In this document: piece after piece, positions 47,649 to 62,742 of the stretch
Numbering within the stretch: position 1 is the first letter of the stretch
Layout: each line of letters begins with the position of its first letter
Assembly: GCF_036013975.1 (NCBI RefSeq)
Contig: NZ_CP107904.1
Span: 124,001 to 188,000 of the forward strand
DNA from: Kitasatospora sp. NBC_00458
Lineage (GTDB): Bacteria; Actinomycetota; Actinomycetes; Streptomycetales; Streptomycetaceae
Direction: 5' to 3'
Length of the DNA stretch: 64,000 nucleotides
Position numbers and translations under genes: made by a program
Notes under the pieces: model-generated
Seen by the model: the letters and a program-made list of their open reading frames with translations, nothing else
What the model was told of the DNA's origin: nothing
The model's database searches: none

Positions 47649-49442
47649 ATGAGGTCTCAGGACAGCGGGCTGTCACCCGCATGGGTTGCGCAGAAGGTCG
47701 TCACCTACGACGAACTCCAGGCAGCGGCAGGCTCGCTGTGGTGGCTGCAGTCCGATCCCGATCACGGCGGGGTCCGTCGGGTGATGTGTTCGGACCGCAC
47801 CGGCACGGCCTTCCCGGTGACGTCTCCCGGCTTCTCGGTGGGCAGTGAGCTCCACGCCTACGGTGGGGGCGGCTTCGCCGTAGTGGGGGGCGGGGTGTGG
47901 TTCGTCGGCGACGACGGTTCCCTCTTCTGTCAACCGCTCGGCGGCGCACCGGAGAGGATCGTGCCCGTCCGCGGCTCCGAGCAGTACGGGGACCTCGTTG
48001 CGGGCCCGGACGGTGGTGTGCTCGCGGTGCGCGGCGACGGCATCGCGGACGAGCTCGTCGCGGTCTCGCCGGCCGGTGCCGTCCAGGTACTGGTTCGTTC
48101 GTCCGAGTTCGTCTCCTGCCCCCGGATCGCGGGAGACGCCCTGGCGTATCTGGAGTGGGGCCGGGACCGGATGCCCTGGGACAGCTGCCGGCTCCTGCTG
48201 GCGGACATCCGTTCCGACCGGCCCGCGTCGGGTCGCGCGGTGGCCGGCGGTGCCTCGGAGTCCGTGGTCCAGCCTTCCTGGGGACCGGACGGCTCGCTGT
48301 ACTTCATGTCCGACCGGACGGGTTGGTGGAACCTGTACCGCCTCCGAGGAAGCACGGCGACGGCCGTCCTGCCGATCGACGCGGACTTCGCGCCGGCCCC
48401 GTGGGAAGGGGGCTACCAGTCGTACGGGTTCACCCCCGACGGCACCGTGGTGCTGACCGTCCTGGACGGGTTCTCCACCCAACTCGTGGCCGTCGATCCC
48501 GATGGCGGCTCGCGCAGGCTCGGCCCGAACCTCACCTCCGTGAAGCCCTACGTCGCCGTCGACGGCGACCGGCTCGCCGTCATCGGAGCTACCCCGACCT
48601 CCGCTCCGGACCTGTGGTCACTCGACCTCGCGGCCGGAGCGGACGCCCCGGCCCTCCCGCTGGGCGCAGCCCGCGAGTCGGCTATTCCCTGGACGCCCGC
48701 CCCACCGTCGGTCGACGCCACGCCGGGTTCCGGCGGACCGGTTCGTTTCCTGCTGCACCGGCCACCGACGGTGGCGGCTCCGGTGCCACTCGTCGTACGG
48801 GCGCACCCCGGTCCGACGGACGACGTCCCTCTGCGGCTGGACTGGACGACCCAGTTCTTCGTCAGCCACGGCTTCGCCGTCGCCGAGGTCCTCTACCGGG
48901 GCAGTACCGGCCGGGGCCGGACGTTCCGCCAGGAACTGCACGGCCACTGGGGCGAGTACGACGTCGACGACTGCGCGGTGGTGGCCGAGCACCTGCGGTC
49001 GACCGGCGTGGCCCGGCCCGACGCGATGTTCATCACCGGCGCGAGCGCCGGCGGGTACACCGCACTGCAGGCAGCGAGCCGCCCCGGACCGTTCGCCGGC
49101 GCGACGGCCGTCTCGGCGATCATCGATCCCGTGCAGTGGGAGCTGTCCGTACCGGAGTTCCAGCGCCCCCACGCAGCCGCGCTGCGAGGGACCGCCGGCG
49201 CCGTGGTGCCCGAAGGGATCCGATGCCCCGTGCTGGTGATCCACGGCACCGCAGACACGATCACATCCGCCGAAGAGGCCATGCGGTTCGCCCAGGAGCT
49301 GTCCGCCCTAGGCGGTGAGCACACCAGCCTGCTCCTGAAGGACGGCGACCACTACCTGTCGGCGCCTTCGGACCGGGAGCAGGCGCTCCACGCCGAACTC
49401 GACTTCTACCAAAGCATCATGAGCCGCCCGAAAGCCGGATAG
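47649..49442 (+). CDS. S9-family prolyl-oligopeptidase-like serine peptidase
   Basis: 597 residues. The N-terminal two thirds is a beta-propeller of WD/TolB-like blades (QPSWGPDGSLYFMSDRTGWWNLYR). The C-terminal alpha/beta-hydrolase has GASAGGYTALQ (GxSxGG, Ser near 465), HGTADTITSAEEA (Asp) and LLKDGDHYLSAPSDREQA (His). It would be a cytoplasmic dipeptidyl- or acylaminoacyl-peptidase-like enzyme; no signal peptide. It is the first intact gene of the island and converges with the XRE regulator, overlapping by 26 bp. Confidence 0.9.
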   Translation: MRSQDSGLSPAWVAQKVVTYDELQAAAGSLWWLQSDPDHGGVRRVMCSDRTGTAFPVTSPGFSVGSELHAYGGGGFAVVGGGVWFVGDDGSLFCQPLGGAPERIVPVRGSEQYGDLVAGPDGGVLAVRGDGIADELVAVSPAGAVQVLVRSSEFVSCPRIAGDALAYLEWGRDRMPWDSCRLLLADIRSDRPASGRAVAGGASESVVQPSWGPDGSLYFMSDRTGWWNLYRLRGSTATAVLPIDADFAPAPWEGGYQSYGFTPDGTVVLTVLDGFSTQLVAVDPDGGSRRLGPNLTSVKPYVAVDGDRLAVIGATPTSAPDLWSLDLAAGADAPALPLGAARESAIPWTPAPPSVDATPGSGGPVRFLLHRPPTVAAPVPLVVRAHPGPTDDVPLRLDWTTQFFVSHGFAVAEVLYRGSTGRGRTFRQELHGHWGEYDVDDCAVVAEHLRSTGVARPDAMFITGASAGGYTALQAASRPGPFAGATAVSAIIDPVQWELSVPEFQRPHAAALRGTAGAVVPEGIRCPVLVIHGTADTITSAEEAMRFAQELSALGGEHTSLLLKDGDHYLSAPSDREQALHAELDFYQSIMSRPKAG

Positions 49443-50748
49443 CCACCCCATCGGCTTCCGGCAGCACGGCCCGGGCGAACTCGCGCAGCTCCCGGGCCGG
49501 GGCGTAGTCGACATGAGCACTCAGGTCCGCCAGAACCCCGGCCACCCTTTCGACGCACCGGCCTGACCCGGTCCTGGCGGTGTAGGCGATGGCGTCCCGG
49601 GCGGCCGCGCACGCCTGGTCGACTTCTCCGCTGCGCAGCCAGGTGGCGGCGAGCAGAGCGGCATCGATCGCGCGTCGGCGAACCCTGTCCTCGCCCACAC
49701 CACTGAGGGCTTCGGCGAGTTGGCTCCTTGCGGCCGGGGCGCGACCGAGATCGTGGAGGCAGTGGGCCACCTCGTCCGCAAGGTAGGCCTGGTTGAAGTA
49801 GCGGATCCAGGCGGGTTCGTCCTGGTGGTCGACGGTTTCGAGTAGCCGTTCGGCCTGGATGATCAGCTTCGTCGCCTCGCCCTCCCTGCGCAGCCTGGCG
49901 TTGGCGCGGGCCACAACGACGGTGATGGCGGCCCGGGTCGCCGGGCTCGCGGCGCTCCCGGCAGCCGCCCGGGCCGACGCTGCCCACCGCAGGGCGGTCT
50001 CCGGCTCTCCGCAGTGCAGCGCAAGGTGCCCGAGGTTGACCGCCACGAGGTAGGCGCCGTACGCCTGGTCGTTGGTCACCGCCGTCAGGGTGAGTGCGCG
50101 CCGGTAGTAGGTCTGGGCCTCGTCGGGGTTGCCGGTGTCGACAGCCTGGTATCCGGCGAGCTCGCAGAACCCGGCAGTGAGTTTCGCCCGTCGGCGAGCG
50201 AGCGACTCGTCCGAGGCCGGACGACGGAGAAGGGCTTCGAGTTCGTTGTCGATGTAGGAGCTGACCTGCCGCCGGTACTGCCGAGCCCCGTGCGTGTGGT
50301 CGAGTTGACGGAACAGGTCGAGCATGCCCTCCACAGCACCGATATCGGCCTCGGTCACCGGAAGCGACGTTGCCGTGGTGCCGCGGTCCGAGTTGACGGA
50401 CAGCCAGTCCGTGACCAGGCCGCCCAACTGTGCCAACGGAGACACTGCGGACGGCGGCACCAGCCCGCCCTGCCCAGGTTGGTGCACCACCTCCAGGAGG
50501 CGCTCGCCGTCCTTTGGTGATGCTGCCTGCACGTCGGCATTCGGACTGCCGGGGAGAAGGGCCGGCAGCTCGGCCACGGCAACCTTCAACAATCTGGCGA
50601 GCTTCGGCATCTGCCACGGTTGCGGCGTCGCTGTGCCCTTCTCCCAGCGATGCACTGTTGTGCGGTCGACGTTCATCAGCTCTGCCAGCTGTTCCTGGGT
50701 GAAGCCGGCGGCTCTGCGCTGCGTGGCAAGCCGTCCCCATCGCGTCAT
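49417..50748 (-). CDS. XRE-family regulator with C-terminal TPR-like helical repeats
   Basis: About 443 residues from ATG at 50748 with GGGGAG upstream. The HTH is at residues 5-60 (LATQRRAAGFTQEQLAELMNVDRTTVHRWEKGTATPQPWQMPKLARLL). The remaining 350 residues are helical repeats of TPR type (AGYQAVDTGNPDEAQTYYRRALTLTAV, LALHCGEPETALRWAASARAA). Such proteins are common streptomycete regulators of development and secondary metabolism, perhaps peptide-sensing. It may regulate the downstream operon that starts 0.4-1 kb away on the other strand. Confidence 0.9.
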   Translation of the reverse strand: MTRWGRLATQRRAAGFTQEQLAELMNVDRTTVHRWEKGTATPQPWQMPKLARLLKVAVAELPALLPGSPNADVQAASPKDGERLLEVVHQPGQGGLVPPSAVSPLAQLGGLVTDWLSVNSDRGTTATSLPVTEADIGAVEGMLDLFRQLDHTHGARQYRRQVSSYIDNELEALLRRPASDESLARRRAKLTAGFCELAGYQAVDTGNPDEAQTYYRRALTLTAVTNDQAYGAYLVAVNLGHLALHCGEPETALRWAASARAAAGSAASPATRAAITVVVARANARLRREGEATKLIIQAERLLETVDHQDEPAWIRYFNQAYLADEVAHCLHDLGRAPAARSQLAEALSGVGEDRVRRRAIDAALLAATWLRSGEVDQACAAARDAIAYTARTGSGRCVERVAGVLADLSAHVDYAPARELREFARAVLPEADGVAIRLSGGS

Positions 50749-51140
50749 CGCGTTCTCCCCAGACCTTCTCGATCCGCCAACCGCGCAGGTCATCGGCAGA
50801 ATTTCAACATCACTGCCGCGCGGTGCAACAAGTCTGCACTGTCACAAAGAGCTTGGCAGGTGTTCCGTATGAGCCACCGAGGAGTTCGCGCCTCGGATCG
50901 GGCCCACCGCGCAGACCGACTTCCCTCGGCGTCGCGCGTTCCGGATGTGCCCGGCGTTCAGCCCGCCATGCCCAGCAGCTGTCCAGACAAGGAAGCCGAT
51001 GAGCACGATCCTCCTTCCCCCGGCAAATCCCGCACCTGCTTCCCCGCCCGGCTCGCCCCCGTGCCGCCCCCGTGCCGACCCCGGACTCTCACCGACCGCC
51101 GACCGGCGGGGGCGCCCAGAACCCTGAGGCCGGTGATTCG
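50749..51140. other. Upstream region of regulator and operon, no gene supported
   Basis: About 390 bp. It should hold divergent promoters for the XRE gene and for the small ORF/preQ0 run. Some open frames are present without coding character. No repeat or strong palindrome was recognised. Confidence 0.4.
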
Positions 51141-51311: not shown

Positions 51312-51778
51312 GAACGACCATCCCTACTTCGGCAACGAGATGGCCGGTCCCGACGACGCTCGACGGCCTTCCCCGATTCTCGTACGTGCGGGCCCTGGTC
51401 TACATCGCCGGGGAACTCACGTGGTGGACCGGCTCCGACCCTCTCGACGACGTCGGCCCCGGGGCGCTGGCCGGCACCTGCAGCAAGATCCGCATCACCC
51501 TCGCCCCTTCGGCCGACATCGGAATCGCCGAAGAGGCTCTCGCTCGCTGCGAGGAGTCCCTGAGAGCCACCGACAGACTCCGCAGGGGCGCTCCAGCCGT
51601 CCGGCTGCTGCACGTGCGCCGTGCGTGCTTCGCGTCCGCAGTCGCTCGGCTCCTCTGCCCCACCCGTCCGACGGCGGCTCCGCCCCGAGTCATCCGGGGC
51701 GAGGTGCTCGCATCCACACCGGTACAAGTCCGTCCGTGTGTTGCCGGCCCGTTTGCCGGGCCAGCCACGGACGCATAG
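51308..51778 (+). CDS. Hypothetical helical protein (possibly DUF6415-like)
   Basis: About 156 residues. The middle (RFSYVRALVYIAGELTWWTGSDPL, PSADIGIAEEALARCEESLRAT) looks like the short helical proteins common in streptomycete regulatory neighbourhoods (DUF6415-like), which I cannot confirm. The C-terminal 50 residues are Pro/Arg-rich and may be frameshifted. It overlaps the small membrane peptide and lies 48 bp before queC. Confidence 0.4.
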   Translation: MRTTIPTSATRWPVPTTLDGLPRFSYVRALVYIAGELTWWTGSDPLDDVGPGALAGTCSKIRITLAPSADIGIAEEALARCEESLRATDRLRRGAPAVRLLHVRRACFASAVARLLCPTRPTAAPPRVIRGEVLASTPVQVRPCVAGPFAGPATDA

Positions 51779-51826
51779 CGACCGGACTCACTCCGCCTCC
51801 GACTCGGAGGACTACGAGAAAGACGT

Positions 51827-52540
51827 ATGGAGATGACTGACTTCACTCCCCCGCGGCACGCGGTGGTGATCGCTTCCGGTGGGCTGGACAGCACCACCGT
51901 CGCCTACTGGCTGGCCGCCAGCGGCAGCAGGCTCACGCTGCTCTCCTTCTACTACGGACAGCGTCACCGAAAGGAGCTGGAGTTCGCGCGGCGGAGCGCC
52001 GCCTGCCTCGGCGCGCGCCACGAGGTCGTGGACCTGAGCGGGCTCGGCCGACTGCTGTCGGGCTCGGCGCTCACGGACCCGGCGATCGCGGTGCCCGACG
52101 GCCACTACACCGCCGAGAGCATGCGCAGCACCGTGGTGCCGAACCGGAACGCGATCATGCTCTCGATCGCCGTGGCCGCAGCGGTCGCCGCCGAGGCGGA
52201 CGCGGTGGCGTTCGGTGCCCACGCCGGCGACCACGCCGTCTACCCGGACTGCCGTACCGAGTTCTTCGACCTGTTCGCCGAGACGGCCCGGGTCGGCAAC
52301 GAGGGGTTGATCCCCGAGGACTTCCGGCTGCTGGCGCCGTTCATCGACCAGACGAAGGCCGACATCGTCGCGGTCGGCCGGCAGGTCGGTGTGCCGTTCG
52401 CGGACACCTGGTCCTGCTACCGCGGCGGCGAGCTGCACTGCGGCACGTGCGGGACATGCACCGAGCGGATCGAGGCGTTCTTGCTCGCCGAGGTCGAGGA
52501 CCCGACCGGGTACGCCGCCGCCACCGGGGCGGAGCGATGA
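51827..52540 (+). CDS. queC: 7-cyano-7-deazaguanine (preQ0) synthase QueC
   Basis: 237 residues. ATP-pyrophosphatase loop SGGLDSTTVAYWLA, the YYGQRHRKELE stretch, VVPNRNAIMLSIA and GAHAGDHAVYPDCR, and the C-terminal zinc site CYRGGELHCGTCGTC. QueC turns 7-carboxy-7-deazaguanine into preQ0 using ATP and ammonia. All hallmark residues are present. ATG at 51827 or 51833. It opens the tightly packed operon; queD overlaps its stop. Confidence 0.95.
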   Translation: MEMTDFTPPRHAVVIASGGLDSTTVAYWLAASGSRLTLLSFYYGQRHRKELEFARRSAACLGARHEVVDLSGLGRLLSGSALTDPAIAVPDGHYTAESMRSTVVPNRNAIMLSIAVAAAVAAEADAVAFGAHAGDHAVYPDCRTEFFDLFAETARVGNEGLIPEDFRLLAPFIDQTKADIVAVGRQVGVPFADTWSCYRGGELHCGTCGTCTERIEAFLLAEVEDPTGYAAATGAER

Positions 52541-52938
52541 ACGGGACCAGCGTCTCCGGCCGGCACCGGATCGGGAAGTCGTTCCGGTTCGAGGCGGCCC
52601 ACTTCCTGCCCGGCCTGCCTGCGGGCCACCAGTGCGCGCGGATGCACGGCCACTCCTACGCCGTGGAGTTCGTCCTCACCGCGGACCGACTGGTGCCGCC
52701 CGGGTTCGTCACGGACTTCGGGGATCTCGCCCCGGTGAAACAGATGATCGACAGCACCCTTGACCACCGGGTGCTGAACGAGGTCCTGCCGGTCACGCCG
52801 ACGTCGGAGAACCTCGCCGCCTGGCTGGCCGGCTGGTTCGCGAAGCACGTGGAGTCGTCGTTGCCGGGTCGACTGGTGTCGGTGCGGGTGTCGGAGACGC
52901 AGAGCAGTTGGGCCGAGTTCGTCCTGGAGGAGCGGTGA
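52537..52938 (+). CDS. queD: 6-carboxy-5,6,7,8-tetrahydropterin synthase QueD
   Basis: 133 residues. Zinc His ligands in FRFEAAHFLPG and MHGHSYAVEF, the catalytic Cys in HQCARMHGHS, FVTDFGDLAPVKQMI and the Asp-His pair in STLDHRVLN, and ENLAAWLAGWF near the end. It makes carboxytetrahydropterin from dihydroneopterin triphosphate, the product of FolE. Overlaps queC and queE stops by four bases. Confidence 0.95.
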   Translation: MNGTSVSGRHRIGKSFRFEAAHFLPGLPAGHQCARMHGHSYAVEFVLTADRLVPPGFVTDFGDLAPVKQMIDSTLDHRVLNEVLPVTPTSENLAAWLAGWFAKHVESSLPGRLVSVRVSETQSSWAEFVLEER

Positions 52939-53648
52939 GCCTGTTGGGAGGCGATGCCGGTGCCGGGAAGGGCCTGCTGGTGGCGGAGTGCTTCGGTCCG
53001 ACGTTCCAGGGGGAAGGCCCGAGCACCGGGCAGCAGTCGTTGTTCGTCCGGCTGTCGCGGTGCAACCTGCACTGCCCTGGATGCGACACCCCCGAGACCT
53101 GGGACTGGTCCCGGTTCGACCCCCGCGAGGTGGCCACGCGGCACAGCGTCGAGGACCTGGCGGCGTGGGTGATGGCCCGTACGCCCAGGCTGGTGGTGGT
53201 CACCGGTGGTGAGCCGCTGCTCCAGCAGTCCCAGCTCGTCGACCTGGTCCAGCTCCTGTCCGGACGCCGCGTGGAGGTGGAGACGAACGGCACCGTCGTG
53301 CCGCAGCCGGAGCTGGTGGAGTCGGTCGCGGCGTTCAACGTGTCGCCGAAGCTGGAGGCCTTCGCCGCGCCCGGGGACCGTCCGATCGTCCCGGCAGCGC
53401 TGTCGGCGTTCGCCGCGTGCGGCAGGGCCCGGTTCAAGTTCGTCGTCCGCGAGGCCGCCCAGCTCGACGAGGTCGCCTCCCTGGTGGAGACGTTCTCGCT
53501 CCCCGAGGTCTGGATCATGCCGGAGGGCACGAGTAGCGAAGCGGTCCTCGGCGAGATGCGGGAAATGGCCGACGAGGTCCTGGAGCGGGGCTGGAACCTC
53601 ACCCCGCGGCTGCACACGCTGCTCTGGGAGGACGAGCATGGCCGGTGA
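52935..53648 (+). CDS. queE: 7-carboxy-7-deazaguanine synthase QueE (radical SAM)
   Basis: 237 residues. FGPTFQGEGPSTGQQSLFVRLSRCNLHCPGCDTPETWDW has the Cys cluster CNLHCPGC (Cx3Cx2C) that holds the 4Fe-4S cluster; VVTGGEPLLQ binds SAM. QueE forms the deazapurine ring. GTG start in the queD stop. The downstream RT-like gene starts 11 bp before its end. Confidence 0.95.
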   Translation: MSLLGGDAGAGKGLLVAECFGPTFQGEGPSTGQQSLFVRLSRCNLHCPGCDTPETWDWSRFDPREVATRHSVEDLAAWVMARTPRLVVVTGGEPLLQQSQLVDLVQLLSGRRVEVETNGTVVPQPELVESVAAFNVSPKLEAFAAPGDRPIVPAALSAFAACGRARFKFVVREAAQLDEVASLVETFSLPEVWIMPEGTSSEAVLGEMREMADEVLERGWNLTPRLHTLLWEDEHGR

Positions 53649-54591
53649 GGAGAGCAAGAAGCCTGGACGGCGCGGTCGTTCCGGCTCCCCGAGGCCGCGC
53701 GTGTTGGGTAGCGGCCAAGCAATCGGTGTGGAGGGGAGCGGGATCCTGCATGCCGTCCAGGCACGACCCACTATAGCCAACTCCCTCCCGCCGCGCGCCC
53801 ATTCGCTGATGCCTTTCCTCGTCGAGCCCCGTCATCTCAAGGCCGCCGCACGGGCGTGCATGCGCCGGGCCGGCGCGCCGGGTGCCGATGGGATGAGCTG
53901 GGCGGAGTTCCGGCAGGGCATGGACGGCCGACTGGAGTCCCTGGCCGAGCAGTTGCGGACGGGCTCCTGGATGCCCGGTCCGCTGCGCGAGGTGGGGATC
54001 ACCACCTACACCGGCAAGGAGCTCCGATCGGTGATCCCGACGGTGAGCGACCGCATCGTCCAGCGGGCGATGCGGAACGCGATCGAGCCGGTGCTGGAAC
54101 AGCGGGCGTTCGCCGACTGGGTTTCGGGCTACCGGGCCGGGCGGAACCGGATCACCGCGCTGTGTGACTCCGAGCGGCACCTGCGCGAGGGGTACCGGTG
54201 GGTGGCGGACGTGGACGTGCGGAGGGTGTCGGAGGGGTCGAGCGCGACCGAGGTCACCGATTGGCTGGCCGAGCACGTGGCCGACGGCCCGTTCCTGCGC
54301 TTGTTCGAGCGGGTGCTGGAGGCCTTGCCGTATCCGCTGGTCCCGGGCACTGCCCTCGCGCCCCTGCTGATCAACCTGCGTCTGTCGCGTGCCGACGCTC
54401 GCCTCGCGGAGTACCGCACGGTGCGGTTCGCGGACAACTACTGTCTCTTCTGCGGCGGCGCCGAGCAGGCCGCCGAGGCGATCGAGGCCGTCACCAGGGC
54501 GTTGGCGCGCTGCGGTCTTCGGCCGAACCTCACGAAGTCGAAGATCTGGGCCGGCGTGAACGCCGAAGACCTTTTCCTGATCGCCGGATGA
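53638..54591 (+). CDS. Reverse-transcriptase-like protein with degenerate catalytic motifs
   Basis: 317 residues from ATG 53638 (GGGAGG upstream), overlapping queE. Group-II-like landmarks: HLKAAARACMRRAGAPGADGMSWAEF and IPTVSDRIVQRAMRNAIEPVLEQRAF near the start, GTALAPLLINLRLSRADARLAEYRTVRFADNYCLFC near residue 250-275 and CGLRPNLTKSKI after. The YxDD box reads FADN (264-267), so the second Asp is Asn; motif A reads DVDVRRVSE (about 191-199) in place of D-x-x-x-F-F-D. No maturase or endonuclease domain. Either a pseudoenzyme or an unusual RT. Its place inside a biosynthetic operon is odd. Confidence 0.8.
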   Translation: MAGEESKKPGRRGRSGSPRPRVLGSGQAIGVEGSGILHAVQARPTIANSLPPRAHSLMPFLVEPRHLKAAARACMRRAGAPGADGMSWAEFRQGMDGRLESLAEQLRTGSWMPGPLREVGITTYTGKELRSVIPTVSDRIVQRAMRNAIEPVLEQRAFADWVSGYRAGRNRITALCDSERHLREGYRWVADVDVRRVSEGSSATEVTDWLAEHVADGPFLRLFERVLEALPYPLVPGTALAPLLINLRLSRADARLAEYRTVRFADNYCLFCGGAEQAAEAIEAVTRALARCGLRPNLTKSKIWAGVNAEDLFLIAG

Positions 54592-55166
54592 GCGGGGAAG
54601 CGATGACGACGAACCCGGCCGGGCACGCACTCGCATGGGTGCCGGTGCCGGGAGGTGTGTGCCTGTTCGGCGACCGGCAGCGGGCGTTGCGAGTGGTCCA
54701 CCTGGAGTGGACGGCGACCCCGGTCACGCCCGCTCAGCTCGGTCTCGGCCCCGACCACCGGCCGCTGGTCGGGTTGGCCCAGGTGCAGGCGGCCCGGATC
54801 GCGGCCGACCTGGGCGGCCGGCTGCCGCTGTCGAAGGAGTGGGAGTGGGCGGCCTCCGGGCCCGAGCGCCGTCCGTACCCATGGGGCGACGAAGAACCGG
54901 ACGAGAGCCGGGCGAATCTGCGCGACGTCTGCGGGCGGCTGACCCCTGTCGACTCCCACCCGGGCGGGCGGACGCCGACCGGGCTGTGGGACATGGCGGG
55001 CAACTGCTGGGAGTGGACCGCATCGAAGACGATCGGCGGCGGGTTCGTCATCCGCGGGGGCTCCTACAACTCCCTGCCGCTGTACGCCAGGTGCACGTTC
55101 CTGAACGCCGCGCCGGCGGAATTCTCCTCGTCGGGCATCGGGTTCCGGGTGGTGAGGCCGGCGTGA
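54588..55166 (+). CDS. Small FGE/SUMF1-fold (formylglycine-enzyme-like) protein
   Basis: About 192 residues from ATG 54588 (coupled to the RT stop) or ATG 54603. It has the family pattern LPLSKEWEWAASGPERRPYPWGDEEPD, PTGLWDMAGNCWEWTAS, FVIRGGSYNSLPLYARCTF and ends GIGFRVVRPA. The two active-site cysteines of true FGE are not both present (one Cys, in ARCTF), so it is not a sulfatase activator. The C-terminal segment has the position of the variable region in DGR target proteins. Function unknown; may be a substrate or carbohydrate-binding domain. Confidence 0.85.
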   Translation: MSGEAMTTNPAGHALAWVPVPGGVCLFGDRQRALRVVHLEWTATPVTPAQLGLGPDHRPLVGLAQVQAARIAADLGGRLPLSKEWEWAASGPERRPYPWGDEEPDESRANLRDVCGRLTPVDSHPGGRTPTGLWDMAGNCWEWTASKTIGGGFVIRGGSYNSLPLYARCTFLNAAPAEFSSSGIGFRVVRPA

Positions 55167-55606
55167 TCGGAGACCTCGTGATCGCGGGCTGCTCGCGCCG
55201 CAAGACACCGGAGACAGGCCTCCTGCCCGCCCTGGAGCGGTACGCCGGGGGCATCGCCCCGCAGCTGAGGGCCCGCTTCGCCGACCACCCGTACGCCCGC
55301 AGCCGGATCCGCTTCCTGTCCGCGGCCTACGGCCTGGTCGGGGCGGACGACCTGCTCGCCTCGTACGACCAACGTCTCGACTCGAACCGCGTCGAAGGAC
55401 TGCACCCGATCGTGAACACCCAGCTGCGGCGCGACTTCGCCGCCGCCGGCGTTCCGCGACGGGTGCTGCTGATCCTCGAACCCGACTACCTGGTCCTGCT
55501 CACCGACCTCCTGGCCCTGCCGGAACGGCCGGTTCTGCACTGGATCCCCGACCCTCGCGGCTGGCCCCAGGCCGCCGCCGTGCTCGACGAATGGAGGTGG
55601 CCGTGA
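55163..55606 (+). CDS. DUF6884-like protein
   Basis: About 147 residues from GTG 55163. GDLVIAGCSRRKTPETG near the start, LERYAGGIAPQLRARF and RIRFLSAAYGLVGADDLLASYDQRLD resemble the (P/G)CS-x-(R/K)K...LSAxxGL pattern of DUF6884 proteins, and more distantly the CS-x-x-K-P motif domains found with archaeal tRNA-guanine transglycosylases. The link to deazaguanine chemistry is therefore suggestive only. Overlaps neighbours on both sides. Confidence 0.6.
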   Translation: MIGDLVIAGCSRRKTPETGLLPALERYAGGIAPQLRARFADHPYARSRIRFLSAAYGLVGADDLLASYDQRLDSNRVEGLHPIVNTQLRRDFAAAGVPRRVLLILEPDYLVLLTDLLALPERPVLHWIPDPRGWPQAAAVLDEWRWP

Positions 55607-56643
55607 CGCACACCAGCCTCGCGGACACGCTCAAGACCCAGGCCAACGCCCACCGGTACTTCACGACGGGATTCACCGAGCGCACCGGCCTGGGCTGGCA
55701 CCAGCCCACCCCCGCCGGCGCCAGTGCCGGCCAGGCTCTGTCGGTTGTGATCCCCGCCCGCGACACCGCCTTCGCTCTGCCGACGGTGCTGGATTCGATC
55801 ACCGCCCAGCAGCACGCGGCCGACGTGGAGGTGATCCTGGTCGACGACGCCTCCACGGACGCGACGTTCGACATCGCCCGACGGCACCCGGCGGCTACCA
55901 CGGTGGTGCGCCTGGCCGACCGACGCGGCTCAGCCGCAGCCCGCAACGTCGGTGCCCACCTCGCCCAGGCCCCGACCGTCCTGTTCGTCGACGCGGACAT
56001 GGTGCTGCCCTCCCACGTGTTCGCCGACGTCGCCGCCCGCGCCGCGGCTGACACCGTGCTGACCGGGTTCCGGCACAACGTCCCCTACCAGGCATCGCCC
56101 TGCGGCGGGCCGCTGCTGCCCGACGGGCCGCCGCTCCTCACGGCCGACCACCGCGTCACCTGGACGCCCCCGGTGGGCAAGGTCCTGCCGTACTCGGGCA
56201 TCACGCTCACCGACCATCTGGACGGACGCCCGCTCGACGCCACCGACGACTTCCAGAACCTCGGGTACGGGCGGTCCTACTACGACTGGGACCTGCCCAG
56301 GATGGCCGTCACCGCGCTGCTCACCGTCCCGCGCGAGCTGCTGCTGGACGTCGGCGGCTTCGACGAGGAGTTCGGGGCACTGGGCTGGGGAATGGAGGAC
56401 ACCCACCTCGGCGCGGCCCTGATCGCCGCCGGCTGCCTCGTCATCCCGCTTCGCCAGGCCGTCGGCTACCACCTGGATCCCCCGGACGCCGCCGCCCAGT
56501 GGCAGACCAAGCTCGCCGGCTGGCCCAGCACCCTCGCCCACTACCGCCGCCTTCTGGCCCTGCCCGCACCCAGCGGGCGCGGTCGCACCTTCACCGCCAC
56601 CACTGACAAGCACCTGACCCACGCCGAGGTGATCACCCGATGA
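55603..56643 (+). CDS. GT2-family glycosyltransferase (GT-A fold)
   Basis: About 346 residues from GTG 55603, with GGAGGT six bases before; ATG 55591 is less likely. SVVIPARDTAFALPTVLDSI, EVILVDDASTD, GSAAARNVGAHLAQAPTVLFVDADMVL (DxD) are the nucleotide-sugar site; DVGGFDEEFGALGWGMEDTHLGAAL is the acceptor-side ED motif. It lacks membrane spans. Would transfer a sugar to the pathway product or a carrier. Confidence 0.9.
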   Translation: MTHTSLADTLKTQANAHRYFTTGFTERTGLGWHQPTPAGASAGQALSVVIPARDTAFALPTVLDSITAQQHAADVEVILVDDASTDATFDIARRHPAATTVVRLADRRGSAAARNVGAHLAQAPTVLFVDADMVLPSHVFADVAARAAADTVLTGFRHNVPYQASPCGGPLLPDGPPLLTADHRVTWTPPVGKVLPYSGITLTDHLDGRPLDATDDFQNLGYGRSYYDWDLPRMAVTALLTVPRELLLDVGGFDEEFGALGWGMEDTHLGAALIAAGCLVIPLRQAVGYHLDPPDAAAQWQTKLAGWPSTLAHYRRLLALPAPSGRGRTFTATTDKHLTHAEVITR

Positions 56644-57587
56644 TCCGTACGTTCGCCGCCGCCATGTTCGGCAGCACCACCGTCGTGCACGACCCGGCGG
56701 TCGGTACCAACCACCTTCCGCCCCAGTCCCTCCCCACCGGCTGTGTCGCCCTCGACGACCAACAGGTCGCCGCCTGGCCCCAGGCCGACCCCGCCGCCCT
56801 CGTCCTCGAATACCCGTTGAGCATGTGCTGGTCCCCGATCGTGCGCTGCAACCTGGACTGCCCCCAATGCCTCGACGACAAGAGCGTGCGCGAGTCCACC
56901 GCGGACGAGCGGCTCGCCCTGGCCGCGCACATCGCCGCCTCGGGTGTTCTGGGCGTCGACATCTCCGGTGGCGAGCCCCTTCTGCTGCGCGACCTGCCCG
57001 ACCTCGCCCGGGCGATCCGCCGCCAGGGCACCAGCGTCGTCAGCTGCACCACCAACGGCTGGCACCTCGCCCGCCGCGCCGAGGAGGTCGCCGGCGCTTT
57101 CGACGCGATCCGCGTCTCCCTCGACGGCGCCACCGAAGCCACCCACGACACCTGGCGCGGCCAGGACAGCTACCGCCGGGCCGTCGAGGGCATCCACGCC
57201 GCCGCGGCCGAGGGCCTGTTCGTCCAGCTGCAGATGGTCCTCATGCAGTCCAACAAGCACGAGGCCCAGGAGCTGCTGGAACTCGCCGCCCACCTCGGCG
57301 CCGGCGGGGTGACCTTTCTCCAGATGCTCCCCATCGGCTCCGGCGCCGCACTCGCCGCCGAGCAGATGCTCACCGACGAACAGGCCCAGGACACCGTCAC
57401 ACCACTCACCGCCCCCGACGGCGTCCGGGTCCGGCTGCGCACCCGCACCAGCGCCGGCGGCTTCACCGTCCTGCGCGCCGACGGCTACGCCTGGCGCAAC
57501 ACCCGGGGCGCCACCGGCATCTCCGCGTTCATCCCCGTCACCGGCCCGGCGGACCTGCGCCTGCCCACCCCCGGGAGCGCCTCATGA
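56640..57587 (+). CDS. Radical SAM enzyme
   Basis: 315 residues. A 65-residue N-terminal extension precedes PIVRCNLDCPQCLDD (CNLDCPQC, Cx3Cx2C), GVDISGGEPLLLRDLPDL (GGE), VSCTTNGWHL and RVSLDGATEATHD. No cysteine-rich SPASM tail was seen. It resembles the PqqE/MoaA-type class, so C-H modification or a carbon-carbon rearrangement of a small substrate or peptide is possible. It is the second radical SAM enzyme of the operon, distinct from QueE. Confidence 0.88.
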   Translation: MIRTFAAAMFGSTTVVHDPAVGTNHLPPQSLPTGCVALDDQQVAAWPQADPAALVLEYPLSMCWSPIVRCNLDCPQCLDDKSVRESTADERLALAAHIAASGVLGVDISGGEPLLLRDLPDLARAIRRQGTSVVSCTTNGWHLARRAEEVAGAFDAIRVSLDGATEATHDTWRGQDSYRRAVEGIHAAAAEGLFVQLQMVLMQSNKHEAQELLELAAHLGAGGVTFLQMLPIGSGAALAAEQMLTDEQAQDTVTPLTAPDGVRVRLRTRTSAGGFTVLRADGYAWRNTRGATGISAFIPVTGPADLRLPTPGSAS

Positions 57588-58141
57588 CCGACAGCCACTA
57601 CGCCGCGAGGCGGGTCTTCGCCCAGCACGTCCCGTTCGCGCCCACGCGCTACCAGTGCTTCGACGCGGCCCGGCTCATCGCCGAGTCCGTCGTCGGGACC
57701 GCCCCGGACGTCTCCTGCGTGATCGGCATCGCCTCGGGCGGGATCGAACCGGCCCGTCTCATGGCCGACTACCTCAGGGTGCCCTTGCACTTCGTCACCG
57801 CCAAGCACAACAAGGGCGACACCCCGTGGCAGCAGGCCACCAGCAACGTCGAGGTGGTGGTAGACAGCAGCCTTCCCGAGTGCTTCGTCGGAACGGTGCT
57901 CCTCGTCGACGACATCGCCGGCACCGGGGCGACGTTCTCCGCCGTCTCCGAGGCGCTGAACGGGCGACTCGACGACGATGCCGCGATCATGTCTGCGGCG
58001 CTGTTCCGCAACCGGGGCTGCACGCAACCGCCGGACCGGTGGGCCTGGACCGTCAACGACTGGGTCGTCTTCCCCTGGGAGAGGCCGCACCATGGCTCGA
58101 CCCAGCCGCTCCCGCCCTTGCGACAGGTGAGCGCCCGATGA
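57584..58141 (+). CDS. Phosphoribosyltransferase (type I fold)
   Basis: 185 residues. PRPP-binding loop VLLVDDIAGTGATFSAV and a PPi-loop region IGIASGGIEPARLMADYL place it in the HGPRT/xanthine-guanine group. A natural role is attaching ribose-5-phosphate to preQ0 or a derivative, as suggested for the PRTase in toyocamycin-type clusters (family knowledge, not shown here). Overlaps neighbours by four bases. Confidence 0.88.
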   Translation: MTDSHYAARRVFAQHVPFAPTRYQCFDAARLIAESVVGTAPDVSCVIGIASGGIEPARLMADYLRVPLHFVTAKHNKGDTPWQQATSNVEVVVDSSLPECFVGTVLLVDDIAGTGATFSAVSEALNGRLDDDAAIMSAALFRNRGCTQPPDRWAWTVNDWVVFPWERPHHGSTQPLPPLRQVSAR

Positions 58142-59271
58142 TCGCCCACGCCTCCTCCCGCGGCGTCCTGCTGGTCCTCGTCTCCTGGACCCCCGACGCC
58201 CCGGCCGGGATAGAGCGCGCGACGGCCGCCTTGGCCGTCGGCCTCGCGCGGAACGGCCACCGCCCGGTCATCGCGACCGCGGCGCCTCAGCCCGGTCACC
58301 CAGGCCTTCCCGGCGTCGCGATCGCACGTCTGCGGCTCGACGGTGTCCAATTCCCGTGCGACGACGCCGTGCTACGGCGCGCGGTCGTCCACCAGGACAC
58401 CGCGTTGACCCGTCAGATCCGGGACCTGATCACCGAACACCGCATCGACACCGTCCTGTTCACCGACGCGCTGTGGGGGCTCGGCCGCCTGTGCGGCGAC
58501 ATCCCCGGCCACGTCCGCCGGGCGCTCGCCGCGCACGTCAAGCCGCACACCCTCGACGCCCGTCCGGCGCTCGCCCGCGCCACCCGCGTCCTCGTGCCCT
58601 CCGCGGTCGTCCGCGACGAGCTGGTGGACTGGGGTCCGCGAAACATCCGTGTCGTGCCCAACGCGCTCCTGGCCGATGCCTCGGTGGCTCTACCGCCGCC
58701 GTCCCGCCGTGAGCAGCTGCGCCGCAGCGGTCCGGTGCGTGTGCTCGCGCGGCTCGGGCCGGAGAAGGGTGTGCTCGACCTGCTGGAGGCTGCCGCCGAC
58801 TGGGACCGGCCTGTCGAGGTGGCCCTCGCCGAAGCCGGGTTTGAGACCGGCGAGGGCTCGCAGTCCGAGCTCCTCGACCGCTGCCGCGAGGCGGCGGCCC
58901 GCACGCCGGGCGTCCACCTGCGCGGAGCACTGGCCTGGGACGAGGTGCTGCCCTGGCTCGCCGGAGCAGCCGTCGTGATCGTCCCCAGCCGCAAGGAGAC
59001 CTTCGGCCTGGTCGCGTTGGAGGCGATGAGCGTCGGCACTCCGGTCATCGCCTACCGTGTCGGCAACCTACCGGCCCTGATCGGCCCGACGGGCCACGGC
59101 GACCACCTGCTCGTCGACCACGGCGAGGGGCCCACCGCCCTCCACAAGGCGGCGCAAACCCTTTTGGAAGATGACATACTGTACGCCGCGACTACACAGA
59201 CCGTGTATCGGCGAGCGGCCGCGTTCGAGCCCCGCCGAATCGCTGACTTCTTCCTGGAAGCGGTGTCGTGA
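58138..59271 (+). CDS. GT4-family glycosyltransferase (GT-B fold)
   Basis: About 377 residues. LSxPGIER-type start (WTPDAPAGIERATAALAVGLARNGH), GPVRVLARLGPEKGVLDLLEAA and the donor motif VVIVPSRKETFGLVALEAMSVGTPVIAYRVGNLPALI (E-x7-E). It is a retaining transferase using a nucleotide sugar. With the GT2 enzyme and a PIG-L deacetylase it implies a decorated product, probably with an amino sugar. Confidence 0.9.
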   Translation: MIAHASSRGVLLVLVSWTPDAPAGIERATAALAVGLARNGHRPVIATAAPQPGHPGLPGVAIARLRLDGVQFPCDDAVLRRAVVHQDTALTRQIRDLITEHRIDTVLFTDALWGLGRLCGDIPGHVRRALAAHVKPHTLDARPALARATRVLVPSAVVRDELVDWGPRNIRVVPNALLADASVALPPPSRREQLRRSGPVRVLARLGPEKGVLDLLEAAADWDRPVEVALAEAGFETGEGSQSELLDRCREAAARTPGVHLRGALAWDEVLPWLAGAAVVIVPSRKETFGLVALEAMSVGTPVIAYRVGNLPALIGPTGHGDHLLVDHGEGPTALHKAAQTLLEDDILYAATTQTVYRRAAAFEPRRIADFFLEAVS

Positions 59272-60134
59272 TGCCCGAAGCCACAACAGCCCCTGCTCCG
59301 TTGCTGCTCGTCGACGGATTCAACCTTCTGTGGGCCGGCACCTTCGGCTTCCCCGCGCCGATCTTCTCCCGCGACAAGACCCGCGAGTTGACCGGGCTGT
59401 TCGCGTTCTTCGCCCTGCTGCGCGCGGCGATCCGTGACGACGTCGACGTCGCGGAGCCCGAGGTCCTGGTCGTCTTCGACGGCGAGCACGGCTCCGCCGA
59501 GCGCGCGGCCACCGACCAGGAGTACAAGGCGAACCGGGAGGCGACGCCCGAGGCGCTCAAGCCGCTGCAGTTCCTCGCCCCGGTCAAGGAGGGGCTGGAC
59601 GCGCACGGGATCCGGTGGATCGAGGTGGACGATGCCGAAGCCGACGACGTCATCGCCACCCTCGCCACCCGGGCCGCTGCCTCGCGTCCCGTACTGATCA
59701 TGTCGCGGGACATGGACTACTACCAGCTCCTCGACAGGCACGTGCGCGTCCTCAACCGATCCCGGAAGTCCTCCCAGCGGATCATCACCGCCACCGAGGT
59801 CGTCGCCCGGTTCGGCGTCACTCCCGCCCAGTGGCCGGCCTTTCGCGCCTTGACCGGCGACAAGTCCGACAACATCCCCGGCGTGCGGGGCATCGGACCG
59901 AAGGTCGCCGCCACCCTGCTGCGCGACGGCATGCAGCTGCGCGACCTGCCCGGGTCCGGGCGACTGACCGGCGCCAAGGGCGCGGCGATCACCACCGCCT
60001 GGGCCGACGTGCTCCGTTGGGAGGCGATGATCACGGTGCGCCGCGATATGGCCGTGCCCGTCGCCCTCAGCGGCCTGGCGAGCCCCCAGCTGCCGAAGCC
60101 CGCCGATGTCGTCGAGAAGTTGGGGCTGTGGTGA
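59268..60134 (+). CDS. 5'-3' exonuclease / FEN-like nuclease (Pol I N-terminal domain type)
   Basis: About 288 residues. Metal-binding acids in LLLVDGFNLLWA, VVFDGEHGSAER, VDDAEADDVIATLA and SRDMDYYQLLD; the helix-3-turn-helix is GDKSDNIPGVRGIGPKVAATLLRDG. It is a complete stand-alone nuclease, as in phage T5 FEN, not fused to a polymerase. GTG 59268 overlaps the previous stop. A DNA nuclease inside a nucleoside-type operon is unexpected. Confidence 0.9.
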   Translation: MMPEATTAPAPLLLVDGFNLLWAGTFGFPAPIFSRDKTRELTGLFAFFALLRAAIRDDVDVAEPEVLVVFDGEHGSAERAATDQEYKANREATPEALKPLQFLAPVKEGLDAHGIRWIEVDDAEADDVIATLATRAAASRPVLIMSRDMDYYQLLDRHVRVLNRSRKSSQRIITATEVVARFGVTPAQWPAFRALTGDKSDNIPGVRGIGPKVAATLLRDGMQLRDLPGSGRLTGAKGAAITTAWADVLRWEAMITVRRDMAVPVALSGLASPQLPKPADVVEKLGLW

Positions 60135-60748
60135 CGGGTTCGGTGCCGGGCTCGGTCCTGGCCGTCTTCGCACACCCCGACGACGCCGAACTGTGGGCCG
60201 GCGCCACCCTCGCGCTCCACGCCAGGTACTCCCCCGTCACCATCGCCGTCCCACACCGCGACGACACCCGCGACGCCGAGGCCCGCAGGGGCGCCGCAGT
60301 CCTCGGCGCTGCCCTGTATCAGCTCCCCCAGCTCGATCACGTCCTGCTGCAGCAACTGCTGCTGGAGACACGCCCCGAGATCGTCATCACCCACCCGCTC
60401 AACGACGTCCACCCCGAACACCGGGCCATCGCCACCACCGTGCTCGCGGCCGTCCCCGAGCCCCGGATCACCACCGGCCGACCGAACCGCCTCTACAGCT
60501 GTGACACCTACAACTCGCTCACCCTCGACGGACCGGTGCGCGCCGACGTGATCGTGGATGCCACGGCGACCTTCGACACCAAGATGGCCGCCCTGCGCGA
60601 GCACGCGAGCCAGCCGATCGAGCAGCACTTCGGTCCCATGGCCGAGACCCTCGGCCGGCTCTGGGGCGCCCGGATCGGTGCCCGGTACGCGGAGGCGTTC
60701 ACCGCCGTCCCGATCCTCGGCTGCCTACCCGGCGCCGCCCACCTCTGA
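60131..60748 (+). CDS. PIG-L-family N-deacetylase
   Basis: About 205 residues. VLAVFAHPDDAELWAGATLAL (AHPDD zinc motif) and ITHPLNDVHPEHRAIATTVL (HPxxDxHPEHR with the third ligand His). Relatives remove the acetyl group from N-acetylglucosaminyl compounds (MshB, BtrD, PIG-L). Fits the two glycosyltransferases by yielding a free amino sugar. Starts GTG in the exonuclease stop. Confidence 0.9.
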   Translation: MTGSVPGSVLAVFAHPDDAELWAGATLALHARYSPVTIAVPHRDDTRDAEARRGAAVLGAALYQLPQLDHVLLQQLLLETRPEIVITHPLNDVHPEHRAIATTVLAAVPEPRITTGRPNRLYSCDTYNSLTLDGPVRADVIVDATATFDTKMAALREHASQPIEQHFGPMAETLGRLWGARIGARYAEAFTAVPILGCLPGAAHL

Positions 60749-60800
60749 ATCGCCGCACCTCGCGGCCCACCCACCGTCAACTCACCCCCAAGGGATGACC

Positions 60801-61397
60801 ATGACGTCCATACCCATGCACGCCCAGCGCCGCCGGCCCGTCGACCGCCCCCGCGTCGAAGAGCTGACCCACCAACTGCTGCTCGCCCTCGGCGAAGACC
60901 CCCACCGCGACGGCCTCAAGGACACGCCCCGCCGGTTCGCCGACTGGTGGGGCGAGTTCCTCGACCACGATCCCGGCAGGCTCACCACCACCTTCGCCCA
61001 GGAAGGCCAGTACGGCGACTTCGTCCTGCTGAGCGGCATCGAGGCGTGGAGCGTCTGCGAGCACCACCTGCTCCCCTTCCGCCTCGACGTGTCCATCGCC
61101 TACGTACCGGACACCGTCGTGCTCGGCCTGTCCAAGCTGGTCCGACACCTGGAGGCCCGCACCCACGCCCTCCAACTCCAGGAACGCATCACCCGCGACG
61201 TCGCCCACGGCCTCGCCAAAGCGGTCGGATCCGACGACATCGCCGTCTTCACCGTCGGTGAGCACCTGTGCATGAGCATGCGCGGCGTCAAGGCCACCGC
61301 GGTCCGCACCACCACCATGTGTCGGCTCGGCCGCACCGAGAGCGATCCCGACCTGGCCGCCCGGATCGAACGCCTCGCGCTGCCCGTTCGCGCATAG
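60801..61397 (+). CDS. folE: GTP cyclohydrolase I (FolE)
   Basis: About 198 residues. VEELTHQLLLALGEDPHRDGLKDTPRRFA, the zinc/catalytic set CEHHLLPF, and GEHLCMSMRGVKA. Converts GTP to dihydroneopterin triphosphate, first step to preQ0 via QueD. ATG 60801 has AAGGGA six bases before; ATG 60795 is the alternative. It is separated from the deacetylase gene by 52 bp, the only clear gap in the operon. It may be a second FolE copy dedicated to this pathway, the housekeeping folate copy lying elsewhere (inference). Confidence 0.94.
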   Translation: MTSIPMHAQRRRPVDRPRVEELTHQLLLALGEDPHRDGLKDTPRRFADWWGEFLDHDPGRLTTTFAQEGQYGDFVLLSGIEAWSVCEHHLLPFRLDVSIAYVPDTVVLGLSKLVRHLEARTHALQLQERITRDVAHGLAKAVGSDDIAVFTVGEHLCMSMRGVKATAVRTTTMCRLGRTESDPDLAARIERLALPVRA

Positions 61398-61469
61398 CCG
61401 CCTCGGTCGGATCAGGCGAGGTCTTACGCGGCCAGCCCTCGCCTGGCGCGGACTCCGTTCCCGGGTGGC

Positions 61470-61987: not shown

Positions 61988-62011
61988 CGATCCGACCAAG
62001 CCCTGTTAAAC

Positions 62012-62735: not shown

Positions 62736-62742
62736 CGTGCCC

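What the first reader, a model, noticed from the sequence alone, without database searches (positions are those of the whole stretch)
51827..61397. Thirteen-gene preQ0 operon with an RT-like protein, glycosyltransferases and a FEN-like nuclease: candidate undescribed system
QueC, QueD, QueE and FolE form a complete route from GTP to preQ0. Between them, and mostly overlapping by four bases, are an RT-like protein, an FGE-fold protein, a DUF6884-like protein, GT2, radical SAM, a PRTase, GT4, a 5'-3' exonuclease and a PIG-L deacetylase. preQ0 to nucleotide (PRTase), then glycosylation and deacetylation is a coherent path to an amino-sugar deazaguanine nucleoside, in the spirit of toyocamycin- or huimycin-type pathways. 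RT and exonuclease are not explained by that, and suggest nucleic-acid involvement (modification or phage defence). No TGT/DpdA homologue is seen, so the known DNA-incorporation route is missing.
Basis: partly seen in the sequence, partly recalled or inferred. Interest (0 to 1): 0.9.

Follow-up and report, generated by a model that had tools for sequence, protein, structure and literature searches.

The report
Deazaguanine gene cassette with RT–RNA pair
Many actinomycete bacteria share a block of genes that joins enzymes for making, and likely sugar-decorating, the unusual base preQ0 with a shortened reverse-transcriptase-like protein, a nuclease with all its active-site residues and a conserved, base-paired element, likely an RNA, that has no Rfam match; we found no description of this combination, and it would suggest that RNA plays a part in a small-molecule pathway.

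Summary
The finding is real and larger than stated. The 13 genes at 51827-61397 form one tightly packed operon in a Kitasatospora-like genome. An all-species genome scan with the RT-like protein found 30 loci, all in actinomycetes; 24 of 30 carry the same ten genes in one order (QueC-RT-FGE-DUF6884-GT2-radical SAM-PRTase-GT4-nuclease-PIG-L), and four of the other six are cut by contig ends. A second arrangement (7 loci) lacks GT2 and radical SAM but keeps FGE, DUF6884, GT4, RT and nuclease. The RT-like protein is a group II-type fingers-palm without thumb, with DNY where RTs have DD. The nuclease keeps 9 of 9 active-site acids in 28 of 28. It follows a preQ0 gene and precedes RT or FGE, shows strong covariation, has no Rfam match, and occurs in exactly the genomes that carry the cassette (6 of 70 and 4 of 394). 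It also keeps a reading frame open into RT or FGE. TGT is absent from the genome. Best reading: a TGT-free route to an aminoglycosylated 7-deazaguanine nucleotide, with RNA-level control by the RT-like protein. Chemistry, strand and function are untested.

The parts
51827..52540 (+). QueC, 7-cyano-7-deazaguanine (preQ0) synthase
   Evidence: PF06508 210.5 bits; found in 28 of 30 loci of the genome scan; in L017 and L040 the contig begins at or inside RT
52537..52938 (+). QueD, 6-carboxytetrahydropterin synthase
   Evidence: PTPS PF01242 104.3 bits
52935..53648 (+). QueE, 7-carboxy-7-deazaguanine synthase
   Evidence: radical SAM families; QueE by context
53656..53779 (.). Conserved structured element, likely RNA, directly after a preQ0 gene and before the RT core; strand not settled
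   Evidence: covariance model R1 99.7 bits; covariation; no Rfam match; co-occurrence with cassette
53661..53670 (.). element helix P1, 5' side (pairs with 53753-53762; the outer three pairs are weaker)
   Evidence: 7 of 10 pairs with changes on both sides in 42 sequences; inner 7 pairs also in unguided folding
53753..53762 (.). element helix P1, 3' side
53680..53690 (.). element helix P2/P3, 5' side (pairs with 53733-53743)
   Evidence: script fold
53733..53743 (.). element helix P2/P3, 3' side
53692..53698 (.). element helix P4, 5' side (pairs with 53711-53717; register uncertain)
   Evidence: 82.3% of cells paired, script fold; unguided folding pairs this part in another register
53711..53717 (.). 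element helix P4, 3' side (register uncertain)
53638..54591 (+). RT-like protein; core begins at ATG 53809, an in-frame extension from 53638 reads through the structured element
54588..55166 (+). FGE-sulfatase-fold protein
   Evidence: PF03781 75.4 bits; relatives of EgtB, OvsA, FGE by sequence
55163..55606 (+). DUF6884-like protein of the YaaA/DpdC group; predicted to act at the preQ0 nitrile
55591..56643 (+). GT2 glycosyltransferase
   Evidence: PF00535
56640..57587 (+). radical SAM protein
   Evidence: PF04055 67 bits; CX3CX2C kept
57584..58141 (+). phosphoribosyltransferase
   Evidence: PF00156 63.7 bits; purine PRTases in PDB
58138..59271 (+). GT4 glycosyltransferase
   Evidence: PF13692, PF00534
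59268..60134 (+). 5'-3' exonuclease of the DNA polymerase I 5'-nuclease type
   Evidence: PF02739, PF01367; best PDB Taq polymerase; 9 of 9 active-site acids invariant in 28 of 28
60131..60748 (+). PIG-L deacetylase
   Evidence: PF02585 39.4 bits; AHPDD kept
60795..61397 (+). FolE, GTP cyclohydrolase I
   Evidence: PF01227 161.4 bits; found in 8 of 30 loci
49417..50793 (-). divergent XRE/TPR regulator, possible regulator of the cassette
   Evidence: HTH_31 and TPR; genes clustered with it lie near the cassette in 17 of 31 loci including the window

Best explanation
This is a conserved actinomycete cassette that encodes a preQ0 supply, a phosphoribosyltransferase, a DpdC/YaaA-like protein, glycosyltransferases, a deacetylase, a thumbless RT-like protein, a 5' nuclease and a base-paired element that is likely RNA, and it likely makes an amino-sugar-bearing 7-deazaguanine nucleotide without TGT, with the RT-like protein predicted to bind the element and control the core genes. 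Inferred steps: (1) FolE, QueD, QueE and QueC make preQ0. (2) The PRTase joins it to PRPP, giving preQ0 nucleoside 5'-monophosphate. (3) The DUF6884-like protein adds water or an amine to the nitrile; in the first arrangement a radical SAM enzyme would follow, as RaSEA follows ArcS in archaeosine synthesis. (4) GT4 (with GT2, or with a second GT4 in the other arrangement) adds an N-acetylamino sugar and PIG-L deacetylates it. (5) The RT-like protein, derived from a group II maturase, binds the element at the start of the next gene block, as maturases are recalled to bind a hairpin at the start of their own gene; the nuclease would trim or cut that RNA or recycle misused nucleotide. Shown here: gene content and order, conservation of residues, covariation of the element and its co-occurrence. 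Not shown: every enzymatic step, the product, RNA binding, and which strand is the RNA.
For: Protein distances of the nine other core genes correlate with RT at r 0.82-0.89, consistent with joint inheritance; no gene outside the cassette was compared. No TGT in the genome, so preQ0 is not for tRNA queuosine. In one locus of the second arrangement (L041) no PRTase is found and a nucleoside deoxyribosyltransferase is present, which fits an N-glycosidic-bond step. DUF6884-like protein: YaaA/DpdC profile and fold matches; ArcS converts preQ0 5'-monophosphate almost fully in vitro and preQ0 base not at all (PMC11298593, abstract and passages). Sugar chemistry: PIG-L best matches BshB1, GT4 matches include MshA and BshA; aminotransferase and Gfo/Idh/MocA genes follow the cassette in 9 of 31 loci and a methyltransferase gene in 7. 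Element: 42 sequences, 82 cells changed on both sides against 29.4 +/- 3.9 in shuffles and 4-18 in slid controls; a model built only from the first arrangement finds it in 7 of 7 loci of the second; it always directly follows QueC, QueE or FolE and precedes RT or FGE.
Against: No enzyme or compound was tested. The ArcS paper itself gives a large Km (433 uM) for the monophosphate and doubts that reaction in cells. Among the genes my caller found, no multi-membrane-span protein lies inside the cassette in 31 of 31 loci by a crude hydropathy count, which is unusual for a secreted antibiotic. The nuclease is poorly explained by this reading. That the RT-like protein binds the element is inferred from neighbourhood and descent only; in the second arrangement the element is fused to FGE and the RT lies one to several genes away, and in L041 and L055 some core genes lie upstream of it. 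In P1, P2 and P4, A.C mismatches (65) outnumber G.U pairs (12) when read on the operon strand, which would suit an RNA on the other strand better than an mRNA element; consensus folding is nearly equal for the two strands (-81.2 and -84.5), P3 shows the opposite lean (12 G.U, 6 A.C), and coding constraint confounds the count. Single sequences fold only modestly better than shuffles (mean z -1.01 operon strand, -1.33 other strand; 17 and 26 of 42 below -1). In one search two measures are weak: pairs with a change on both sides 12 against 9.0 +/- 1.4 (16 of 500 shuffles reach it) and pair types 23 against 24.9 (469 of 500). A DNA hairpin is not excluded by sequence alone.
Confidence: 0.38

Rival explanations
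1. Nucleic-acid modification or phage defence: a preQ0 derivative is placed in DNA or RNA and decorated there, and the RT-like protein and nuclease act on nucleic acid, like a Dpd island or a defence RT system without TGT.
For: DpdC-like protein; RT with a conserved structured element; nuclease with all active-site residues; no transporter seen in the cassette; DUF6884 family matches candidate defence family PDC-M57A in 32 of 32, best E 2.7e-10; the RT matches PADLOC's general RT profile at 5.4e-39.
Against: No TGT; no methylase, helicase or ATPase family among the 13 proteins; among the ten proteins scanned PADLOC names no other Dpd component; sugar genes downstream look like natural-product chemistry; the 30 loci of the all-species scan all bear actinomycete titles (two peptide patterns only, so distant relatives could be missed).
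Confidence: 0.17
2. Ordinary nucleoside antibiotic cluster: RT-like protein and nuclease are self-resistance or repair proteins for an analogue that enters nucleic acid, and the element is a plain attenuator or riboswitch.
For: preQ0 genes as in toyocamycin and huimycin clusters (PMC7439116, passages); rare and patchy (11 of 394 class genomes hit, 4 of them this family) in large actinomycete genomes; regulator nearby; the element stands at one operon position and keeps a reading frame.
Against: RT, FGE, DUF6884 and nuclease follow the same distances as the biosynthetic genes; the element recurs in the second arrangement before a different gene; no exporter seen in the cassette.
Confidence: 0.2
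3. RNA-scaffolded synthesis: the structured RNA, held by the RT-like protein, carries the preQ0-derived nucleotide while the cassette enzymes modify it, and the 5' nuclease then releases the finished nucleotide.
For: one element per cassette genome, 6 of 70 and 4 of 394, matching the cassette exactly; ArcS acts on preQ0 in RNA; intact nuclease; RT-like protein altered at the polymerase features we could compare; A.C excess hints at an RNA other than the mRNA.
Against: The element appears translated (30 of 31 lengths multiples of 3; no in-frame stop in 31) and always follows a preQ0 gene, which a free carrier RNA would not need; no known way to insert preQ0 into it.
Confidence: 0.15
4. The RT and FGE pair is a diversity-generating retroelement, retron or degenerate group II intron sitting in a preQ0 operon by accident.
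For: RT next to an FGE-fold protein resembles DGR targets (recalled).
Against: No template/variable repeat: in 4 regions only two-copy repeats of 40-50 nt at 70-77% identity, which I take as chance; FGE C-terminal region is conserved, not variable; same order in 24 of 30 loci.
Confidence: 0.03

Closest known systems
Huimycin and toyocamycin clusters (PMC7439116, passages)
   Same: FolE, QueD, QueE, QueC make preQ0, then sugar is attached; actinomycetes
   Different: The seven hui genes named there are a regulator, four preQ0 genes, a methyltransferase and a glycosyltransferase; no RT, nuclease, FGE, DUF6884 or PIG-L among them
Dpd islands, 7-deazaguanine in DNA (PMC11888242, PMC6884629, passages)
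   Same: preQ0 genes with a DUF6884/DpdC protein
   Different: No TGT in the genome; of the Dpd proteins PADLOC names only DpdC among ten cassette proteins scanned; RT, sugar genes and structured element added
Archaeosine synthesis, ArcS plus RaSEA (PMC11298593, abstract and passages)
   Same: A protein acting at the preQ0 nitrile plus a radical SAM enzyme; archaeal AF0587 is the second fold match of our DUF6884 model
   Different: tRNA substrate placed by ArcTGT; no sugars, RT or nuclease in that pathway
Group II intron RT/maturases (6ar1, 5hhl)
   Same: Fingers and palm fold, 26% identity over 258 residues; descent likely
   Different: Ends at palm (chain residue 288 of 417): no thumb or later domains; YADD to xDNY; Phe five after the motif A Asp to Ser, Ala or Thr; fingers IPK lysine and following arginine changed
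Retrons and DRT systems with ncRNA
   Same: RT with neighbouring structured RNA
   Different: No evidence of a template; metabolic partners; best DRT-class PADLOC profile only E 4.6e-8
Taq/Pol I 5' nuclease
   Same: Same family and all active-site acids
   Different: Stand-alone protein in a biosynthetic-looking cassette

Membership tests
Dpd DNA-modification island | DpdA, a TGT relative | tested here: not met
   PF01702 0 matches in own genome, 14 of 14 controls positive; no such family among the 13 proteins
Dpd DNA-modification island | DpdC-like protein | tested here: met
   21 of 32 family members match a DpdC profile at E 0.1 or better, best 1.8e-4; the window member only E 0.02
Dpd DNA-modification island | preQ0 derivative in DNA | not testable with these tools
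   needs nucleoside mass spectrometry
preQ0-derived nucleoside cluster (toyocamycin/huimycin type) | complete preQ0 supply | tested here: met
   FolE, QueD, QueE, QueC
preQ0-derived nucleoside cluster (toyocamycin/huimycin type) | glycosyl or phosphoribosyl attachment enzyme | tested here: met
   PRTase, GT2, GT4
preQ0-derived nucleoside cluster (toyocamycin/huimycin type) | a pyrrolopyrimidine product | not testable with these tools
   no metabolomics
YaaA/DUF6884/DpdC superfamily | profile match of family members | tested here: met
   DUF6884 32 of 32, best 2.4e-14; YaaA 16 of 32, best 8.9e-5
YaaA/DUF6884/DpdC superfamily | shared fold | tested here: met
Group II intron RT/maturase | RT fingers-palm | tested here: met
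Group II intron RT/maturase | thumb/maturase domain and YADD | tested here: not met
   model ends at chain residue 288 of 417; DNY in all 26 rows of each alignment
Group II intron RT/maturase | group II intron RNA | tested here: inconclusive
   no Rfam family up to E 1 over 49000-62500 except a snoZ6 match below its cut-off inside QueE
Diversity-generating retroelement | template/variable repeat pair | tested here: not met
   none convincing at 40 nt or more in 4 regions
Archaeosine-type ArcS/RaSEA pair | ArcTGT placing preQ0 in tRNA | tested here: not met
   no TGT in genome
Retron or DRT defence system | RT activity on its ncRNA | not testable with these tools
   needs biochemistry; catalytic centre altered

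The most novel reading that the evidence does not exclude
A small-molecule pathway that runs on its own RNA: a retired group II reverse transcriptase holds a dedicated structured RNA on which a preQ0-derived nucleotide is built and glycosylated, and a Pol I-type 5' nuclease cuts the finished nucleotide free.
Probability: 0.15. Interest if true: 0.97.

Novelty: categorically new. Interest (0 to 1): 0.88.

Why it matters
A reverse-transcriptase fold and a 5' nuclease are fixed parts of a metabolic-looking operon across many actinomycete genera, together with a structured element that has no Rfam match. If the RT-like protein and RNA act in the pathway, RT domestication reaches beyond defence, mobility and repair into biosynthesis or its RNA-level control. 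The cassette also marks a TGT-free 7-deazaguanine route and a testable source of unknown nucleosides in named culturable strains.

Tried and rejected
N-terminal protein extension as the whole explanation of the conserved 53656-53779 segment: rejected as sole cause, because base pairs covary, G+C shows no codon rhythm over the 150 nt before the core ATG (0.705/0.663/0.686 by codon position against 0.708/0.529/0.841 in the RT core, 31 loci), and two codon-third T columns are invariant. Identity by codon position still dips at third positions there (0.663 against 0.721 and 0.756). Non-coding spacer: also rejected as sole cause, because lengths to the RT ATG are multiples of 3 in 30 of 31 loci and the RT frame has no stop in 31 of 31, while the other two frames have stops in 21 and 27 of 31. 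L018 is the exception, with one extra base in P1 and an offsetting loss.

DGR: no convincing repeats. tRNA gene in the cassette: none in 47000-64000. Rfam: nothing at the element. Phage or plasmid origin: 24 phage records match, the 20 listed at 25-30% identity; two plasmid records match; one, an Embleya plasmid (43%), proved to be the second arrangement, the other (Paraburkholderia, 32%) was not inspected. Transporter: none inside the cassette by hydropathy of called genes. Helix P4: my register is supported by the script fold but not by the tool folds.

Print: the listings of nine searches in the held library showed no paper on a preQ0 cassette with an RT; (reverse transcriptase, preQ0, biosynthetic gene cluster, Streptomyces) gave 0. 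Several listings were cut at 10-20 rows of hundreds, and the library lacks most subscription journals.

Weak points kept: the strand is open; counts on A7 lean to the model it was fitted to, so A5 and A8 (MAFFT) are the ones to trust. L018 was dropped from the fold comparison. L017 and L040 could not be tested for the element: their contigs begin 34 nt before, and inside, the RT core.

Full report
Place and genome. The window is bases 124001-188000 of a single 8.01 Mb contig. The closest named RT relatives are Kitasatospora, so the genome is Kitasatospora-like. The operon runs from QueC (51827) to FolE (61397). With the starts chosen, eleven of 12 junctions overlap, nine of them by exactly 4 nt; PIG-L/FolE is 46 nt apart.

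Is the set conserved? The RT core (260 aa) has 271 relatives at E 1e-5 or better among 3494 candidates (120 listed; the tool admits only proteins of similar length). One scan of species genomes with the RT alignment gave 30 loci in genera including Streptomyces, Kitasatospora, Micromonospora, Asanoa, Actinocatenispora, Thermoactinospora, Thermomonospora, Planotetraspora, Nocardiopsis, Amycolatopsis, Sciscionella, Saccharopolyspora, Saccharothrix, Actinosynnema, Crossiella and Prauserella. In 24 of 30, ten genes stand in one order and orientation: QueC-RT-FGE-DUF6884-GT2-rSAM-PRTase-GT4-nuclease-PIG-L. L015, L017, L039 and L040 are cut by contig ends, L032 lacks GT2, L031 loses the set after the start of GT4. 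QueD and QueE stand between QueC and RT in the window and many loci but not in most of the Pseudonocardiales loci. Seven further loci show the full set (L053, L068, L070, L071, L104-L106; in L105 the nuclease match is in two pieces). Pairwise distances of the other nine proteins follow RT at r 0.82-0.89; no gene outside the cassette was compared.

How common. Kitasatospora-like genus: 7 of 70 genomes hit at 1e-20, six of them with 71-100% identity and neighbours, the seventh (32%) without any other cassette gene in its short locus. Class sample: 11 of 394 at 1e-30; four are this family (G000, G201, G310, G312); of the seven weaker hits one was inspected and has no cassette. Own family: 10 of 394 at 1e-50. 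Family of G310: 13 of 317.

A second arrangement. An Embleya plasmid (L041), G312 (L055) and five genomes of the family of G310 (L097-L101) carry FGE, DUF6884, GT4, a PIG-L, a WbqC protein, RT, a second GT4 and nuclease with preQ0 genes, without a GT2 or radical SAM match (one member each of the PIG-L, WbqC and second GT4 checked by Pfam). PRTase is found in six of seven; L041 instead has a nucleoside deoxyribosyltransferase. No QueC was found in the fetched 19.5 kb of L055. So RT, nuclease, FGE, DUF6884, GT4, a deacetylase and a base-glycosylating enzyme stay together through rearrangement.

The nuclease. It matches Pol I 5' nucleases. Nine acids equivalent to the Pol I active site and the YK..R arch residues are invariant in 28 of 28 (equivalence by alignment to Taq, site roles recalled).

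The structured element. All loci of the first arrangement that reach it share about 120 nt directly before the RT core ATG, whichever gene lies upstream. On 31 sequences a 21-pair structure has 93.7% of cells paired and 82 cells changed on both sides, against 29.9 +/- 5.0 in 500 shuffles and 10-16 in slid versions. A model built from these then found the element in all 7 loci of the second arrangement, at 53.8-77.8 bits, none of which were used to build it, and there it lies before FGE, not RT. On 42 sequences aligned by MAFFT without the model, 82 cells against 29.4 +/- 3.9 (slid 4-18), and unguided RNAalifold places 21 pairs of which 15 have compensated changes. Two of the five measures are weak: the number of pairs with a change on both sides is reached by 16 of 500 shuffles in both counts, and the number of pair types is not above shuffles (218 and 469 of 500). 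Pairs that barely vary in the first arrangement change on both sides in the second (C-G to U-A in five, G-C to A-U in three). Script folding gave -81.2 (operon strand) and -84.5 (other strand) against -28.9 +/- 4.1 for shuffled columns (41 sequences, L018 left out). Single sequences fold only modestly better than their shuffles (mean z -1.01 and -1.33). Helices P1 and P2/P3 are firm; the register of P4 differs between methods. The element is found in 42 of 42 other cassettes whose contig reaches it (L017 and L040 do not reach). It occurs once in the own genome, in 6 of 70 genus genomes and 4 of 394 class genomes, in each case exactly those with the cassette (against 9, 34).

The element also keeps a reading frame. 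Frame is kept in 30 of 31 loci, no in-frame stop in 31, and in both second-arrangement loci examined (L041, L055) the same frame runs into FGE. In every cassette where it was located it directly follows QueC, QueE or FolE and precedes RT or FGE; in L041 and L055 some core genes (DUF6884, PIG-L, WbqC) lie upstream of that FolE. These facts favour a cis-acting mRNA element. Against this, A.C mismatches outnumber G.U pairs 65 to 12 in P1, P2 and P4 on the operon strand, which hints at an RNA on the complementary strand; helix P3 leans the other way (12 G.U, 6 A.C, 31 sequences) and coding constraint confounds the count. I leave the strand open, and sequence alone does not exclude a DNA hairpin.

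What it most likely does. See Best explanation. The small-molecule half rests on gene families and on the ArcS and DpdC precedents; the RNA half on covariation, position and co-occurrence. Missing transporters, the nuclease and the strand question keep the nucleic-acid rivals alive, so confidence is 0.38.

Known or new. Huimycin's seven genes share only preQ0 supply and a glycosyltransferase (PMC7439116, passages). Dpd islands need DpdA, absent here. A survey of bacterial RTs from 2014 (PMC4244168, passages) mentions neither QueC nor Streptomyces in its main text. The listings of nine library searches showed no report of this combination; the library is partial.

Noticed in passing
window 53809-54591; alignments A1, A4: The RT-like proteins all end on a conserved EDL segment with an invariant glycine as the last residue, in both arrangements; unexplained.
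   Followed up: partly
L014, L018, L020, L022, L028, L030, L036-L038 downstream of PIG-L: DegT aminotransferase and Gfo/Idh/MocA genes follow the cassette in 9 of 31 loci, and a methyltransferase gene in 7 (one member of each checked by Pfam), suggesting extra amino-sugar decoration.
   Followed up: partly
L041:12075-12578: Nucleoside 2-deoxyribosyltransferase gene (PF05014) next to the nuclease in the Embleya plasmid cassette, where no PRTase was found.
   Followed up: partly
L022, L025, L031: Sciscionella marina carries three cassette copies on two contigs, one of them missing its 3' part (L031).
   Followed up: no
L037, L038, L039: RT reading frame is split in two or three pieces in these loci, decay or sequencing error.
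   Followed up: no
upstream of QueC in 11 loci, e.g. L039:1997-2479: A conserved protein of about 160 aa without Pfam match, in most of these loci directly before QueC.
   Followed up: partly
DUF6884 family, alignment A2: 32 of 32 members match PADLOC candidate defence family PDC-M57A, best E 2.7e-10.
   Followed up: no
window 47649-49442 and 62755-63999: Peptidase S9 gene upstream and a berberine-bridge-type FAD oxidoreductase downstream; no link to the cassette shown.
   Followed up: no
window 61465-61783: Short ORF just after FolE whose translation reads like the end of an ABC transporter permease (by eye), possibly a remnant.
   Followed up: no
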